DNA of 46,627 nt, from contig JAFQTN010000014.1 in the NCBI GenBank assembly GCA_017409025.1, positions 1-46,627 on the forward strand, in the 5' to 3' direction. Source of the DNA: Bacilli bacterium. Lineage in GTDB: Bacteria; Bacillota_I; Bacilli_A; RF39; UBA660. The translations under genes were made by a program, and so were the position numbers. Below are positions 13,262 to 29,333 of this stretch, piece by piece. Position 1 is the stretch's first letter; each line of letters starts with the position of its first letter. The notes beneath the pieces are model-generated. The model ran no database searches. It saw nothing but the letters and a program-made list of their open reading frames with translations, and was not told where the DNA came from.

Positions 13262-13292
13262 TCAATTTAATAACTATTGATTACTTTTATTT
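13254..13292. terminator. bidirectional terminator
   Basis: 13-bp perfect stem (13254-13266 with 13276-13288) between the convergent kinase-like gene and the pilus-type ATPase. A-rich and T-rich flanks suit both directions. Confidence 0.85.
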
Positions 13293-14518
13293 ATATATTT
13301 CATTTTAGTTTCAGCATTTAATTCATCATCTGATTCAACTAATTTTATAACTTGTTCAGTAGATGTAAGACCTGCAATTACTTTATATAGGCCATCTTGA
13401 AGTAGAGTTATAACGTCATCTTTATATACTAATTCTCTTAGTTCAGCTTTAGATATTTTAGCACTAATAGCATCTCTTATATTTGGAGATATTAACAATA
13501 CTTCTTGAAGAGCAATTCTTCCTTTGTAACCGGCAGAACATTCTGAACATCCTACTGCATCGTGAACTTGATTTATATCTAATCCTAAATATTTTTTAAA
13601 TAATTGTTTTTCATATGGAGTAGTTTCTCTTAATGTTTTACATTTATCACATAATTTTCTAGCTAATTTTTGGCTGACTATTCCAGATAGGGCAGATGCT
13701 AGTAGATATCTTTCTACTTCCATATCAATAAGTCTTTCTATGGTAGTAAGAGAGTTATTAGTATGTAGAGTAGATAATACTAGGTGACCGGTGATAGATG
13801 CTCTAACTGCTATTTGGGCTGTTTCTGTGTCTCTTATTTCTCCAATCATGATAACGTTTGGGTCTTGTCTTAAAATACTTCTTAATACTGCTGCAAAGTC
13901 TAGACCAATATCACTGTTTACCTGTACTTGGTTTATACCTTCAATTTCCATTTCTACTGGATCTTCAACGGTAATTAAGTTAGTACCTTTTACATTTAAT
14001 TTTTTTAAGAATGAATATACAGTAGTTGATTTACCACTACCAGTAGCTCCAGTTACTAATATTATTCCGTTTGGAGCACTAATCATTTTTAATATTTTTT
14101 TATAGTTTTCTTCAGAGAAGAATAAATATTCGATACCTTGCATACTTCTTGAATAGTCTAGAATTCTTATAACAATTTTTTCTCCCTTTTTAGTAGGCAA
14201 AGAAGAAACACGCATATCTAAATCCATTCCACCAAGTTCAGTTTTTATAGCACCATCTTGTGGAAGCCTTGTTTCGGTTATATTCATTCCTGATAGTATT
14301 TTAATTCTTGTTACAACGTTTTGTTTAACTTCATTAGGTATATCAGCATAATCATTTAAGATTCCATCAATTCTTACTCTTACTTTAAGACAATCTTCGG
14401 CATGGTCTAAGTGAATATCACTGGCTCCTGCTTTAACAGAATCTAAGATAATACGGTTTACAACGTCAACGACAGGAGTATTTATAAAGTCTATTGTACT
14501 TTGCATAATATCACTCAT
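13274..14518 (-). CDS. GspE/PilB/ComGA-family secretion ATPase
   Basis: Cytosolic hexameric ATPase that drives assembly of type IV pili, competence pseudopili or type II secretion fibres. The 414 residues lack the long N-terminal domain of PilB. Visible are GASDIHLD near 32, Walker A GATGSGKST near 157, the Asp box GEIRD near 226, HTNNS (His box) near 253, and a tetra-cysteine zinc motif CDKC...CSEC near 289-328. ATG 14518 is directly preceded by GGG; ATG 14506 with GGGATG upstream is as likely. No PilC-type membrane protein or prepilin peptidase is in this window, but prepilin-like genes lie at 29.9, 34.5-36.5 and perhaps 44.8 kb. Confidence 0.92.
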   Translation of the reverse strand: MSDIMQSTIDFINTPVVDVVNRIILDSVKAGASDIHLDHAEDCLKVRVRIDGILNDYADIPNEVKQNVVTRIKILSGMNITETRLPQDGAIKTELGGMDLDMRVSSLPTKKGEKIVIRILDYSRSMQGIEYLFFSEENYKKILKMISAPNGIILVTGATGSGKSTTVYSFLKKLNVKGTNLITVEDPVEMEIEGINQVQVNSDIGLDFAAVLRSILRQDPNVIMIGEIRDTETAQIAVRASITGHLVLSTLHTNNSLTTIERLIDMEVERYLLASALSGIVSQKLARKLCDKCKTLRETTPYEKQLFKKYLGLDINQVHDAVGCSECSAGYKGRIALQEVLLISPNIRDAISAKISKAELRELVYKDDVITLLQDGLYKVIAGLTSTEQVIKLVESDDELNAETKMKYINKSNQ

Positions 14519-14622
14519 CCCAATCTTTCTTATTCTATATAAGATTATATAATATAATTATTTTTTTTTCAATAGTATGAGAATTTTTTTATAAAAAATA
14601 ATAGGGCAAATGATGTATATGC

Positions 14623-14651
14623 TTGAAAAATGTGCATTAATATGTTATTAT
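14623..14651 (+). promoter_or_regulatory. promoter of antisense RNA, element 1
   Basis: TTGAAA (14623-14628), 17 bases, TATTAT (14646-14651). Element 2 has the same -10 and the same bases after it (TATTATG, one variable base, ATATGT). Confidence 0.7.
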
Positions 14652-14657
14652 GAATAT

Positions 14658-14763
14658 GTCAAGGAAACTTGCATAAAATAAAAAGGAACATTCAATGTCG
14701 CATGTTGGGTGTTGCCGTAAATTTGGTTCCACCTAATCAGCTTGAGTTAGGTGGATTTTCTTT
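14658..14763 (+). ncRNA. candidate antitoxin-type RNA, element 1
   Basis: Predicted RNA of about 105 nt. Near its 5' end CAAG-GAAA-CTTG (14660-14671) forms a GNRA-capped hairpin. It then carries GAACATTCAA (14686-14695), GTTGGGT (14704-14710) and TTGCC (14712-14716), and ends at a rho-independent terminator with CCACCTAA and TTAGGTGG arms (about 14729-14754) and a T-rich tail. It runs towards, and would be antisense to, the 3' region of the minus-strand peptide mRNA. The same order of parts recurs at 29077-29190 with changed but still pairing bases. The antitoxin role is inferred. Confidence 0.6.
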
Positions 14764-14902
14764 TTATATTAAAACTATGAATAGCAATAATATTAATGGG
14801 AAGATAAGAATGATTAATGAAAAGATTAAAAAATCCTTCTTACTCATATTATCGCCTCCCTTCATTAAGAAGTTTGGCAAATTACCCAACTTTTGAATGT
14901 TC
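14686..14902. repeat. inverted-repeat ends of element 1
   Basis: Left arm 14686-14716 and right arm 14876-14902 share GAACATTCAA, GTTGGGT and TTGCC in opposite orientation. The minus-strand mRNA would therefore begin with one arm and contain its complement in the 3' region, followed by a T-rich stretch (TTTTTATTTT). The antisense RNA carries the same sense as the mRNA 5' end. Confidence 0.75.
14764..14847 (-). CDS. 27-residue hydrophobic peptide, candidate type I toxin 1
   Basis: The reading frame starts MSKKDF and continues as an almost uninterrupted run of Leu, Ile and Phe to the stop, with one Pro: a single membrane-spanning helix with a positively charged N terminus. A full ribosome site GGGAGG (14855-14860) lies seven bases before the ATG, and a strong promoter lies upstream (14910-14938). 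Size, composition and convergent antisense RNA are those of type I toxins such as the Fst/Ldr class, but the Fst core motif is absent and the sequence is not alike. Too short for homology; the call rests on architecture and the second copy. Confidence 0.55.
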   Translation of the reverse strand: MSKKDFLIFSLIILIFPLILLLFIVLI

Positions 14903-14909
14903 GACTCAA

Positions 14910-14938
14910 ATTATATCAGGTATATTTATATGAATCAA
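14910..14938 (-). promoter_or_regulatory. promoter of peptide mRNA, element 1
   Basis: On the minus strand TTGATT (14933-14938), 17 bases, TATAAT (14910-14915). Transcription is expected to start at about 14902, exactly at the GAACATTC of the right inverted repeat. Confidence 0.75.
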
Positions 14939-15013
14939 TAGATTTTATTAATGTTCAATAAGGGGTTAACTATAATATAAATAATAAATAATTTTATAAT
15001 TAAATTAATGTTT

Positions 15014-15075: not shown

Positions 15076-15101
15076 TTATTTAGTAGTAATAGGTGATAAA
15101 T

Positions 15102-18053
15102 ATGTACTTAAAAGAAATACAAACTTATGGTTTTAAATCATTTGCTGATAAAATGAATTTTGAACTTACAAGAAATATTAATGGAATAGTTGGTCCTAAT
15201 GGTAGTGGTAAGTCTAATGTAGTAGATGCTGTTAGATGGGTACTTGGGGAACAATCTAATAAACAACTTAGGGCTGATAATGCGGTATCAGTTATTTTTT
15301 CTGGTAGTAAAAGTAGAAAACCATTAAATAGTGCGATGGTTAATTTAATATTTGATAATACTGATAGGCATTTACCAATAGATTTTAATGAAGTATCAAT
15401 TAAAAGAATTTTATATCGTACTGGAGAGAATGAATATTATTTAAATGGAGAAAAATGTAGGTTAAAGGATATAACAGAACTTTTAACTGATAGTGGTGCT
15501 GCAAAAGAGAGTTTTAATATTATTGGTCAAGGGAAGATAGATGAAATATTATCTACTAAGCCTAATGATCGTAGAGTTATTTTTGAAGAAGCTGCGGGTG
15601 TTTTAAAATATAAAAAGAGAAAAGAAGAAGCTATTAGAAAATTAGAAAGAACTAATAATAATATTAATAGAATTAATGATATAGTATCTGAACTAGAAGT
15701 TAATTTAGAACCTTTAGAAAAACAAAGTAGAGAAGCTAAAAAATATATTGATGCGAAAGAAAAATTAACTAATATAGAAGTATCTTTAATGGTATATGAT
15801 GTAGATAAATTATCTAGTGAATTTAATTTATGTAAAGAAAAGATTACTAGTTTATCGGATGAAATAACTAACTTAAATATGAATAATACTACTTATGATG
15901 TAACTATTTTACAAGGGAAAGATAAATTAAATAAATTAGAAAATGAAATATCTATTTTGCATAATAAAGTATTGGTTTCTACTAAAGAATTGGAACAAAC
16001 TGATGCGGATATAAGAATTTTAAGAGAAAGAAAAAAATATGTATCTAGTGATAATAGTTTTGATAAGATAAGTAGAATTAGAGAAGATAAGTTAATTAAA
16101 GATAATGAAATAAAAGTTATAATAAATGATATAGATGTTCTTGATAAGAAAGTAGGAATTGTAGATTCTGAACTTATTAGTGATAATAGTAAATATAATG
16201 AGATTAAGAATGATATTGATAAGTTAAATATAAAGATTAATAATAATAATAGAGAAATAACTGACTTGAATTATAAAATTAATTATTTAGAAGAATCTAT
16301 TAATAATGGTGGTAGTTTACCTAGTAGTATTAAAGCTATACTTAATAATCCTAAATTTAGTGGAATAGAGAATACTATTGGTAATTTAATTGAAGTACCT
16401 AATGAGTATTCATTAGCAGTATCTACTAGTTTAGGGGGAGCAAGTAATTATTTAGTAGTAGATAATAGAAATACAGCTTCTTTATTAGTAGATTATCTAA
16501 AGACAAATAAGTTGGGTAGGGCTACATTTTTTCCAATGGATGTTATTAAGCCAAGATTTGTTGATAATGATATAATTGTTAAACTACGTGTGGTAGATGG
16601 ATTTATTGATACATTAGACAAAGTAGTAAGTTATGATAGTAAATACATAAATATTATAATGAATCAACTTGGTAATGTAATACTTGCAGATAATATTGAT
16701 AATGCTAATAAGATTAGTAGTATTATCAATAATAGATATAAGATTATTACTTTAGATGGACAAGTGGTTAATGTTGGTGGATCTATTACTGGTGGAGATA
16801 AGATTAAGAGTAATGATTCTATTAGACAAAAATATGAATTAGATGAATATAAGAATAAAGTTAATACTCTTAGAAACAATAATCATGATTATATGAGTTT
16901 AATTGATAATAAGAATCAAGATTTAAAAGAATATGAAAATAAGATATATACTAAGAGAGTAGATAAGAATAGTATGTTAGAACTTATTAAGAGTAAGAAA
17001 CTTATTAGTGATAATTTAAGAATAGAGATTAATAATTTAGATAGAGAACTTAGTGATATAGAGAATATTACTACTAATAATAGTGATAATGAAGAATTAG
17101 AATTAGTAAATAAATATTATAAGATACAAGAAGATATTACTAATATGAATAAGGAATTAGAAATATTTAAGTTAGATAGAGATAAAATTAATAAAGATAT
17201 TTTAGAATTAGAGGGTATTAGTAAGAATGATAATTTACATATTGCTAAGTTAGAAAAAGAACTTAAGGATACGGAAATTAAGTCTTCTAAATTAGAAGTA
17301 AGAATAGATAATATTCTTAATAGTTTAAATGAAGAATATAGTATTACTTATAGTGAGGCTAAAGATAAGTATATATTAGAAGATAATCCAGATGAAGTAA
17401 GAAAAGAAGTATTAGAACTTAAGAATATTATTAAAGATATTGGTATTGTTAATTTGGGAGCTATTGAAGAATATGAAAGAGTATCTACTAGATATAATTT
17501 CTTAATGAGTCAAAAAGAAGACTTGAATAAGGCTGAAGATACTTTACTTGAGATAATTAATGATATGGATTCTATTATGAAAGATAAGTTTATATCTACT
17601 TTTGATGAAATTAGAATGGAATTTAAGAAAGTATTTAGAGAATTATTTAAGGGAGGAAACGCTGATATTTATATGACAGATCCTGATAATGTACTTGAAA
17701 CTGGAATAGAGATGGAAGCTACTCCTCCAGGAAAAAATCTTAGAAATATTCAATCACTATCTGGTGGAGAGAGAACGTTTACAGCGATATCACTACTATT
17801 TGCAATACTTAATGTTAGACCAGTACCATTTTGTTTATTTGATGAAGTAGAAGCTGCACTAGATGAAGCTAATGTTGATGCTTTTGGAGAATATTTAGAT
17901 AAATATAGGGATAAGACTCAGTTTATTATAATTACCCATAAGAAAAAGACAATGGAATTTATTGATACTTTATATGGAATTACGATGCAAGAGTCTGGTG
18001 TATCTAAATTAGTATCTGTTAAATTAGATGAAGTTAAGAATACTAGTAATTAG
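15102..18053 (+). CDS. smc: chromosome segregation ATPase Smc
   Basis: Condensin core protein that organises and segregates the chromosome. N-terminal head: YGFKSFADK near residue 9 and Walker A GPNGSGKSN at 31-39, followed by the R-loop WVLGEQ. Coiled coil runs about 165-400, the hinge about 405-560, and the returning coil about 565-800. The C-terminal head has signature LSGGERT from residue 886 and Walker B with FDEVEAALDEAN. At 983 residues it is about 200 shorter than the B. subtilis protein, and the loss falls in the two coils. ATG 15102 follows AGGTGATAA. No scpA, scpB or ftsY adjoins it. Confidence 0.95.
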   Translation: MYLKEIQTYGFKSFADKMNFELTRNINGIVGPNGSGKSNVVDAVRWVLGEQSNKQLRADNAVSVIFSGSKSRKPLNSAMVNLIFDNTDRHLPIDFNEVSIKRILYRTGENEYYLNGEKCRLKDITELLTDSGAAKESFNIIGQGKIDEILSTKPNDRRVIFEEAAGVLKYKKRKEEAIRKLERTNNNINRINDIVSELEVNLEPLEKQSREAKKYIDAKEKLTNIEVSLMVYDVDKLSSEFNLCKEKITSLSDEITNLNMNNTTYDVTILQGKDKLNKLENEISILHNKVLVSTKELEQTDADIRILRERKKYVSSDNSFDKISRIREDKLIKDNEIKVIINDIDVLDKKVGIVDSELISDNSKYNEIKNDIDKLNIKINNNNREITDLNYKINYLEESINNGGSLPSSIKAILNNPKFSGIENTIGNLIEVPNEYSLAVSTSLGGASNYLVVDNRNTASLLVDYLKTNKLGRATFFPMDVIKPRFVDNDIIVKLRVVDGFIDTLDKVVSYDSKYINIIMNQLGNVILADNIDNANKISSIINNRYKIITLDGQVVNVGGSITGGDKIKSNDSIRQKYELDEYKNKVNTLRNNNHDYMSLIDNKNQDLKEYENKIYTKRVDKNSMLELIKSKKLISDNLRIEINNLDRELSDIENITTNNSDNEELELVNKYYKIQEDITNMNKELEIFKLDRDKINKDILELEGISKNDNLHIAKLEKELKDTEIKSSKLEVRIDNILNSLNEEYSITYSEAKDKYILEDNPDEVRKEVLELKNIIKDIGIVNLGAIEEYERVSTRYNFLMSQKEDLNKAEDTLLEIINDMDSIMKDKFISTFDEIRMEFKKVFRELFKGGNADIYMTDPDNVLETGIEMEATPPGKNLRNIQSLSGGERTFTAISLLFAILNVRPVPFCLFDEVEAALDEANVDAFGEYLDKYRDKTQFIIITHKKKTMEFIDTLYGITMQESGVSKLVSVKLDEVKNTSN

Positions 18054-29035: not shown

Positions 29036-29062
29036 ATGACTTGTCAAAAGGTCATTTTTTTG
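29034..29062 (+). terminator. terminator of the tsa operon
   Basis: AAATGAC (29034-29040) pairs with GTCATTT (29051-29057) and is followed by T. It starts on the stop codon of tsaD and overlaps the promoter of the next element. Confidence 0.8.
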
Positions 29063-29069
29063 ATATTAT
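29041..29069 (+). promoter_or_regulatory. promoter of antisense RNA, element 2
   Basis: TTGTCA (29041-29046), 17 bases, TATTAT (29064-29069). The -35 lies inside the tsaD terminator loop, so transcription of the two is tightly packed. Confidence 0.65.
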
Positions 29070-29076
29070 GTATATG

Positions 29077-29190
29077 TATGAAGGAAACTTCATAAAATAA
29101 AAAAAGGGAACATTCAGTTATTGTTTGTTGGATGTCTACCTATAAAAATTTGGACATTTAATTCATTTTTGAATTAAATGTTATTTTTTT
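29077..29190 (+). ncRNA. candidate antitoxin-type RNA, element 2
   Basis: Predicted RNA of about 113 nt with the same order of parts as 14658-14763. TATGAAG-GAAA-CTTCATA (29077-29094) is a 7-bp stem with the same GAAA loop; CAAG/CTTG in element 1 became GAAG/CTTC here, a compensatory change. Next come ATAAAATAAAAA, GGGAACATTCAGTTA (29106-29120) and GTCTACC (29134-29140). It ends in a perfect 12-bp terminator (29154-29165 with 29170-29181) and a T-run. The antisense role against the minus-strand peptide mRNA is inferred. Confidence 0.62.
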
Positions 29191-29333
29191 ATAACCATTA
29201 CCAATAGGGTAAGAAGGAATAAAATGATAGATATATATCTTAGAAACTTTAAAATAAAGATTCTTTTTTTCATTCTTCTCAGACCTCCTTTCTTTTAGAA
29301 ATGGAGGTAGACAACCTTGTAACTGATATTCCC
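29106..29333. repeat. inverted-repeat ends of element 2
   Basis: Left arm 29106-29140 and right arm 29306-29333 share, in opposite orientation, GGGAA-AT-CAGTTA, GTTG and GTCTACC/TCTACC, with small gaps. The arms agree with each other better than with those of element 1, so each copy keeps its own complementarity. Confidence 0.72.
29181..29273 (-). CDS. 30-residue hydrophobic peptide, candidate type I toxin 2
   Basis: The peptide starts MKKRIF and ends VMVIKK: a basic N terminus, one membrane helix rich in Ile, Leu and Phe, and a Lys-Lys end. A strong ribosome site AAAGGAGG (GGAGG at 29284-29288) lies ten bases before ATG. The promoter at 29342-29370 faces it. It shares layout but no clear sequence with the 27-residue peptide of element 1. 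Longer frames on this strand across the same bases have no ribosome site. Function is inferred from architecture only. Confidence 0.57.
   Translation of the reverse strand: MKKRIFILKFLRYISIILFLLTLLVMVIKK

What the first reader, a model, noticed from the sequence alone, without database searches (positions are those of the whole stretch)
14620..14940. Type I toxin-antitoxin-like element with inverted, not direct, repeats
Two convergent promoters with 17-base spacers (14623-14651 plus; 14910-14938 minus) face each other. The minus mRNA begins at GAACATTCAA...GTTGGGT...TTGCC and encodes a 27-residue membrane peptide with a strong ribosome site. The plus RNA has a GNRA hairpin, carries the same GAACATTCAA...GTTGGGT...TTGCC, and stops at a terminator beside the peptide stop codon. 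In the Fst/par type the repeats are direct, so the two RNAs are complementary at their 5' ends. Here they are inverted: the mRNA 5' end can fold back on its own 3' end, and the antisense RNA copies the mRNA 5' sequence. That suggests competition for the 3' arm, as a switch between inert and active mRNA. I know of no described family with this layout.
Basis: partly seen in the sequence, partly recalled or inferred. Interest (0 to 1): 0.85.

Follow-up and report, generated by a model that had tools for sequence, protein, structure and literature searches.

The report
Multicopy RNA-controlled peptide toxin family
This 300-base element is one of six copies in its genome of a previously uncatalogued family of tiny membrane-peptide genes, each paired with an overlapping antisense RNA that probably keeps the peptide switched off; the family fills a whole lineage of uncultured gut bacteria, with up to 24 copies per genome.

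Summary
Two convergent RNAs, a 27-residue membrane peptide and a repeat shared by both RNA 5' regions are all present. The element recurs six times in this genome, in 143 of 193 genomes of its order, and almost nowhere else. The peptide is under purifying selection (dN/dS 0.14-0.42), and the RNA II hairpins covary at 16 of 17 pairs. It is very probably a type I toxin-antitoxin family. Pfam, NCBIfam, PHROGs and Rfam (gathering thresholds) have no entry for it. The mRNA terminator lies behind the antitoxin's first hairpin, so the mRNA 3' end can pair with the leader (about 24 pairs), and leader and 3' end coevolve copy by copy. Folding predicts that antitoxin binding frees the leader to pair more with the ribosome site. 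That is the bsrG/SR4 logic of Bacillus subtilis, so the layout is not without precedent. It is not Fst: no PxxxG motif, no bidirectional terminator. No expression or toxicity data exist. New variant of a known kind, interest 0.6.

The parts
14623..14651 (+). RNA II (antitoxin RNA) promoter, TTGAAA-17-TATTAT, extended -10
   Evidence: -10 and 17-nt spacing kept in relatives
14658..14766 (+). RNA II, predicted antitoxin RNA (~109 nt); +1 inferred
   Evidence: covariance model R1 match G000:C35:14657-14761
14660..14671 (+). 5' GNRA hairpin of RNA II (CAAG-GAAA-CUUG)
   Evidence: recurs as CAAG/CUUG or GAAG/CUUC in copies
14672..14684 (-). A-rich tract of RNA II; on the minus strand the U-rich tail of the toxin-mRNA terminator
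14685..14716 (+). HP1: first hairpin of RNA II, copy of the mRNA leader; its reverse complement is the predicted RNA I terminator hairpin
14728..14755 (+). T: RNA II terminator hairpin; 5' arm pairs with the mRNA leader (direct repeat), 3' arm copies it
14756..14766 (+). U tail of the RNA II terminator
14764..14847 (-). toxin-like peptide ORF, MSKKDFLIFSLIILIFPLILLLFIVLI, 27 aa
   Evidence: dN/dS in the family 0.14-0.42
14851..14860 (-). Shine-Dalgarno region GGGAGGCGAT
14854..14878 (-). SL2: leader hairpin sequestering the SD (GCC...GGC)
   Evidence: predicted
14876..14902 (-). SL1: mRNA leader repeat, arms W (AACATTCAA) and X (GTTGGGT...TTGCC)
14673..14902 (-). RNA I, predicted toxin mRNA (~230 nt); ends inferred
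14910..14938 (-). RNA I promoter, TTGATT-17-TATAAT, extended -10
   Evidence: TATAAT in 83 of 112 copies
29041..29069 (+). second copy in this window: RNA II promoter
29106..29140 (+). second copy: HP1
29153..29182 (+). second copy: RNA II terminator hairpin
29181..29273 (-). second copy: 30-aa peptide MKKRIFILKFLRYISIILFLLTLLVMVIKK (subfamily B)
29303..29333 (-). second copy: mRNA leader repeat

Best explanation
A chromosomal type I toxin-antitoxin module of a new, lineage-specific, multicopy family. The minus-strand mRNA (RNA I) encodes a 25-31 aa single-span membrane peptide. The plus-strand RNA II is a cis-antisense RNA that overlaps the last ~94 nt of the mRNA (last codon and 3' UTR). Shown by sequence: the layout; purifying selection on the peptide; conserved RNA II hairpins; an mRNA terminator placed behind the antitoxin's first hairpin; and a leader that coevolves copy by copy with both RNA II hairpins, that is, with its own 3' UTR. 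Inferred: (1) the nascent leader hides the ribosome site in SL2. (2) The finished mRNA closes by 5'-3' pairing. (3) RNA II pairs with the 3' UTR and displaces the leader, which then pairs more with the ribosome site, while the duplex is cut by RNase III. (4) If RNA II falls, the peptide is made and damages the membrane. This is bsrG/SR4-like logic.
For: Six copies in the genome with the same anatomy. A peptide frame in 138 of 176 parsed copies, mostly with GGAGG or AAGGTGG, and in 56 of 60 new hits found by an RNA II model that contains no toxin sequence. dN/dS 0.14-0.42. RNA II covariation at 16 of 17 pairs. U-rich tail behind the reverse complement of HP1 (7.8 of 10 nt) but not behind that of T (2 of 113). 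Leader x terminator arm: cognate -11.1 vs permuted -8.5 kcal/mol in group A, 0/2000. Leader x rc(HP1): -24.5 vs -19.5 in group A and -33.5 vs -29.8 in group B, 0/1000 each. Both replicate in 13 paralogs of one unused genome and in 35 further copies, 0/2000 each. The leader base outside SL1 covaries with the terminator arm in all four Watson-Crick types. Leader-3' UTR pairing is predicted in 108 of 110 mRNAs; blocking the 3' UTR raises SD-leader pairs by at least one in 62 copies and lowers them in 6. 143 of 193 genomes of the order carry it, and almost none outside.
Against: No transcript, toxicity or binding data. SD accessibility as a whole does not change between the two predicted states (0.15 in both), because the ORF also masks it. 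The RNA I -35 box is weak (typically 3 of 6). Coevolution of leader and HP1 could in part reflect gene conversion between inverted repeats. Trans pairing (leader with RNA II) and cis pairing (leader with its own 3' UTR) cannot be separated cleanly. The leader-terminator test is not significant within group C. The window copy has lost one leader-terminator match.
Confidence: 0.72

Rival explanations
1. Type I TA of the Fst/par working type: RNA II's terminator 5' arm pairs directly with the mRNA leader (complementarity from direct repeats) and blocks translation there; the 5'-3' fold-back is a by-product of hairpin homology.
For: Leader-terminator arm complementarity is copy-specific, and convergent promoters are present.
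Against: No PxxxG toxin motif (0 of 161). No bidirectional terminator. Pairing lies upstream of the SD, not on it. W (leader 5' arm) is more strongly matched to V (HP1 5' arm, same sense) than to any RNA II complement; RNA II-leader pairing does not explain that. Where T has a Z=U/T3=G wobble, the leader never carries A.
Confidence: 0.25
2. hok/AapA-like: the full-length mRNA closed by 5'-3' pairing is the inert, stable form, and 3' trimming activates it; RNA II then removes only the activated form.
For: A strong 5'-3' interaction is predicted in nearly every copy. SD-masking hairpins upstream and in the ORF resemble the metastable hairpins of aapA3 (PMC6733600).
Against: RNA II is complementary to the 3' end that trimming would remove. 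The predicted 5'-3' helix masks the SD hardly at all (0.11 pairs), unlike aapA3. Gram-positive precedents do not need processing.
Confidence: 0.2
3. A repeated non-coding element (MITE-like or a small RNA family) whose peptide frame is incidental.
For: Many dispersed copies and tandem arrays; frequent positions next to tRNA genes; some copies with RNA II only.
Against: dN/dS 0.14-0.42, strong SD kept, the frame kept in 56 of 60 hits chosen without it.
Confidence: 0.05
4. Harmless signalling or regulatory membrane peptide under antisense control, not a toxin.
For: No toxicity test exists, and the number of copies per genome is high for a lethal gene.
Against: Peptide length and hydrophobicity match type I toxins (reviewed in PMC8309996). 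One drifted copy with a decayed RNA II 5' part has also lost its SD (L066); a single case.
Confidence: 0.15

Closest known systems
bsrG/SR4 and bsrE/SR5 (Bacillus subtilis)
   Same: Convergent genes with RNAs overlapping at their 3' ends over about 100 nt; 30-38 aa toxin; SD in a short stem; mRNA leader pairing with the 3' UTR behind the stop (Rfam BsrG consensus); antitoxin attacks the 3' part of that helix and, for SR4, lengthens the SD stem (PMC7430163, PMC6562991).
   Different: No homology at Rfam's gathering threshold (window 21.1 bits vs 55; no match in 20 relatives). The leader is repeated in two RNA II hairpins and pairs with the extreme mRNA 3' end; RNA II is shorter (109 vs 163-180 nt); many copies per genome; no match to phage collections.
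Fst/par (pAD1 type)
   Same: Convergent promoters, leader-RNA II complementarity, SD-sequestering leader hairpin (PMC7472228).
   Different: No PxxxG motif, no bidirectional terminator, complementarity upstream of rather than on the SD; inverted repeats in addition to direct ones.
aapA/IsoA (Helicobacter) and hok/sok
   Same: 5'-3' long-distance interaction in the toxin mRNA, metastable SD-masking hairpins, several copies per genome (aapA).
   Different: There the antisense RNA targets the mRNA 5' region (own knowledge for aapA; PMC6562991 for hok); here it overlaps the 3' UTR and itself supplies the 3' arm's complement. The predicted 5'-3' helix does not itself hold the SD.
CD2517.1/RCd8-type modules (Clostridioides difficile)
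   Same: Convergent overlapping toxin and antitoxin genes, several per genome (PMC6563280).
   Different: Toxins of 50-53 aa; no leader repeat described there.

Membership tests
Type I toxin-antitoxin (general) | small hydrophobic peptide gene under purifying selection | tested here: met
   dN/dS 0.14-0.42; 25-31 aa
Type I toxin-antitoxin (general) | cis-antisense RNA gene overlapping the mRNA | tested here: met
   promoter, conserved hairpins, terminator, ~94 nt overlap; transcription itself not tested
Type I toxin-antitoxin (general) | peptide toxic, RNA neutralises it | not testable with these tools
   needs expression
Fst/par | convergent promoters | tested here: met
Fst/par | shared bidirectional terminator | tested here: not met
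   U-rich tail on the mRNA strand behind T in only 2 of 113 copies; it lies behind HP1
Fst/par | direct repeats giving leader-RNA II complementarity | tested here: met
   terminator 5' arm x leader, cognate-specific
Fst/par | PxxxG motif and charged C-terminal tail in the toxin | tested here: not met
   0 of 161 peptides; about 1 K/R in the last 5 residues
BsrG (RF01412) | covariance model score at or above gathering | tested here: not met
   21.1 vs 55 bits in the window copy; no match in 20 relatives
bsrG/SR4 mechanism | leader pairs with 3' UTR; antitoxin binding lengthens the SD stem | tested here: inconclusive
   predicted: leader-3' UTR in 108 of 110; SD-leader pairs rise in 62, fall in 6 of 110; total SD exposure unchanged
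aapA/hok | 5'-3' interaction that sequesters the SD, relieved by 3' trimming | tested here: not met
   5'-3' helix predicted, but SD-3' UTR pairs only 0.11 on average; trimming not testable

The most novel reading that the evidence does not exclude
A toxin-antitoxin switch built from three versions of one hairpin: the mRNA leader and two antisense-RNA hairpins share one sequence, so that leader and antitoxin compete for the same mRNA 3' end, and each paralog keeps a private code. Such orthogonality would let as many as 24 modules coexist in a ~1.5 Mb genome without cross-silencing.
Probability: 0.4. Interest if true: 0.78.

Novelty: new variant of a known kind. Interest (0 to 1): 0.6.

Why it matters
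It adds a large, uncatalogued type I TA family to an uncultured gut lineage (one order of Bacilli with genomes of about 1-1.5 Mb) for which I found no description of such systems. Hundreds of paralogs with private leader, hairpin and terminator sequences form a natural experiment on how antisense pairs stay orthogonal. They also make the bsrG-type leader/3' UTR switch testable by covariation, which a few Bacillus loci do not allow. Genome annotation pipelines probably miss these 25-31 aa genes.

Tried and rejected
(1) Leader-peptide attenuator: the plus RNA has ATG TCG CAT ... TAA before the terminator, but the ATG is absent in other copies. (2) Known RNA families: none at gathering threshold; the BsrG near-miss (E 0.004) occurs only in the window copy, not in 20 relatives, and a mir-181 match in L067 is chance. 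(3) Known toxin families: Pfam, NCBIfam and PHROGs give nothing. (4) Phage or plasmid origin: no match in IMG/VR by pattern, or in phage and plasmid records by blastn. (5) Trans anti-SD pairing of the HP1 3' arm with the SD: no cognate excess that holds up (last test). (6) Pairing of leader arm W with terminator 3' arm T3: no cognate excess (256 of 500). (7) Deciding between trans (leader-Z) and cis (leader-rc T3) by G-U positions: leans to cis but is confounded by ancestry. (8) In one search the mRNA 3' end was mis-set for a few copies (for example L002, L006); corrected.

Full report
WHAT IS THERE. The finding is real at base level. On the plus strand a promoter (14623-14651) drives an RNA that begins with a GNRA hairpin, continues through an A-rich tract and a hairpin (HP1, 14685-14716), and ends at a terminator hairpin (T, 14728-14755). 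On the minus strand a promoter (14938-14910) drives an mRNA. Its 5' end is the repeat GAACATTCAA..GTTGGGT..TTGCC (14902-14876); a Shine-Dalgarno sequence (14860-14851) and a 27-codon hydrophobic frame (14847-14764) follow. Promoter-like matches by themselves are no more common than in shuffles, so the case rests on recurrence.

RECURRENCE. The same anatomy occurs six times in the genome, once more inside the window (29041-29333). A DNA search of 98 relatives found it in 41 genomes, all of the same family. A covariance model of RNA II (32 copies; 16 of 17 pairs with both-sided changes) finds it in 100 of 145 genomes drawn from the family and 143 of 193 of the order. In a class sample and a phylum sample it occurs outside the family in single copies only (G318, G730). 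Copy number reaches 24 in one ~1.5 Mb genome. Named records are uncultured gut Bacilli/'Tenericutes', including Candidatus Ventrenecus and Onthousia. Viral, phage and plasmid collections gave no match.

THE PEPTIDE. Of 176 copies, 138 could be parsed with a hydrophobic frame ending beside the terminator; 113 of these have a good ribosome site. At least five sequence groups exist. Pairwise dN/dS is 0.14-0.42. The frame is present in 56 of 60 further copies that were found with the RNA II model alone, an independent check. No protein family library recognises the peptide.

THE mRNA 3' END. On the mRNA strand the sequence behind the reverse complement of T is not U-rich (2 of 113 copies). Behind the reverse complement of HP1 lies a U-rich tract (7.8 of 10). 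The mRNA therefore probably runs through the whole RNA II region and ends behind HP1. This may explain why the A-rich tract of RNA II is so conserved, and it means that the mRNA carries the complement of both RNA II hairpins.

COEVOLUTION. The leader arm X pairs with the terminator 5' arm Z better in its own copy than in permuted copies of the same toxin group (group A -11.1 vs -8.5 kcal/mol, 0/2000; weaker in B, D and E; absent in C). The leader base just outside the local hairpin covaries with Z in all four Watson-Crick types. The leader as a whole pairs with the reverse complement of its own HP1 better than with that of group mates (A and B 0/1000, E 1/1000, C 11/1000, D 80/1000). Both results replicate in 13 paralogs of one genome and in 35 other new copies (0/2000 each; these permutations run across toxin groups). 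W and V, the same-sense 5' arms of leader and HP1, are coupled (0.907 vs 0.863), whereas W and T3 are not. Same-sense coupling is expected if W pairs with the complement of V, which exists only at the mRNA 3' end. Gene conversion between the repeats remains a partial alternative.

MECHANISM. In all groups the SD is masked by an adjacent leader hairpin and/or the ORF. Leader-3' UTR pairing is predicted in 108 of 110 mRNAs. When the 3' UTR is made unavailable, as by RNA II, SD-leader pairs rise from 2.9 to 4.3 on average (up in 62 copies, down in 6), while total SD exposure stays at 0.15. This is the pattern described for bsrG/SR4, where antitoxin binding at the 3' end lengthens the SD stem from 4 to 8 bp (PMC7430163). 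The Rfam BsrG consensus likewise pairs its leader with the 3' UTR just behind the stop. RNase III cleavage of the long duplex is inferred from the B. subtilis systems (PMC6562991). Membrane damage by the peptide is inferred from its class (PMC8309996).

COMPARISON. It works most like bsrG/SR4, but it is not in that Rfam family by score. It shares convergent promoters and leader-RNA II complementarity with Fst/par but fails two tested defining features, the PxxxG motif and the bidirectional terminator (features from PMC7472228). It shares a 5'-3' interaction with hok and aapA (PMC6733600), but the antisense target and the SD partner differ. Inverted and direct complementarity both follow from that.

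VERDICT. A new, large, lineage-specific type I toxin-antitoxin family with a bsrG-like, possibly private-coded leader/3' UTR switch. That it is a TA module I hold at about 0.85, the switch at about 0.5. Nothing has been shown at the bench.

Noticed in passing
window 29041-29333 (copy L006): A second, divergent copy (toxin group B) lies in the same window, outside the given coordinates.
   Followed up: yes
upstream of RNA II in many copies, e.g. L058, L043, window 29037-29060: The RNA II promoter is often nested in a terminator-like hairpin: the -35 box sits at the loop and the T run forms the spacer (58 of 164 copies with a stem of at least 6 bp and 2 G-C pairs; 17 of them followed by 4 or more T). 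It might insulate RNA II from upstream genes.
   Followed up: partly
L004 1352-1437; L009, L014, L018, L023, L024, L025, L027, L028; tmRNA in L017: About a third of the inspected copies lie close to a tRNA or tmRNA gene.
   Followed up: partly
L212 (three copies ~475 bp apart), G031:C16:6991-7743, G179:C6:34509-35467: Tandem arrays of the element, in part with different toxin groups.
   Followed up: no
G038:C27 (L097 and L063): About 1.6 kb of foreign DNA with IS-like ends (TGTACCC..GGGTACA) appears inserted in the RNA II terminator loop, leaving an apparently intact toxin without its own complete RNA II.
   Followed up: partly
L315 (G528:C3): Chimeric copy: group B leader with a group E toxin and RNA II terminator, suggesting recombination between paralogs.
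   Followed up: no
G318:C32 (L263, L266) and G730:C20 (L296): Single copies in genomes of other families; horizontal transfer or bin contamination not decided.
   Followed up: no
L109, L136, L140, L141, L293, L307, L322, L331: Copies with an RNA II match but no recognisable toxin frame (possible solo antitoxins).
   Followed up: no
window 13274-14518 (-) and 15093-18053 (+): The element lies between a T2SSE-type secretion ATPase gene and the smc gene, both ordinary.
   Followed up: yes
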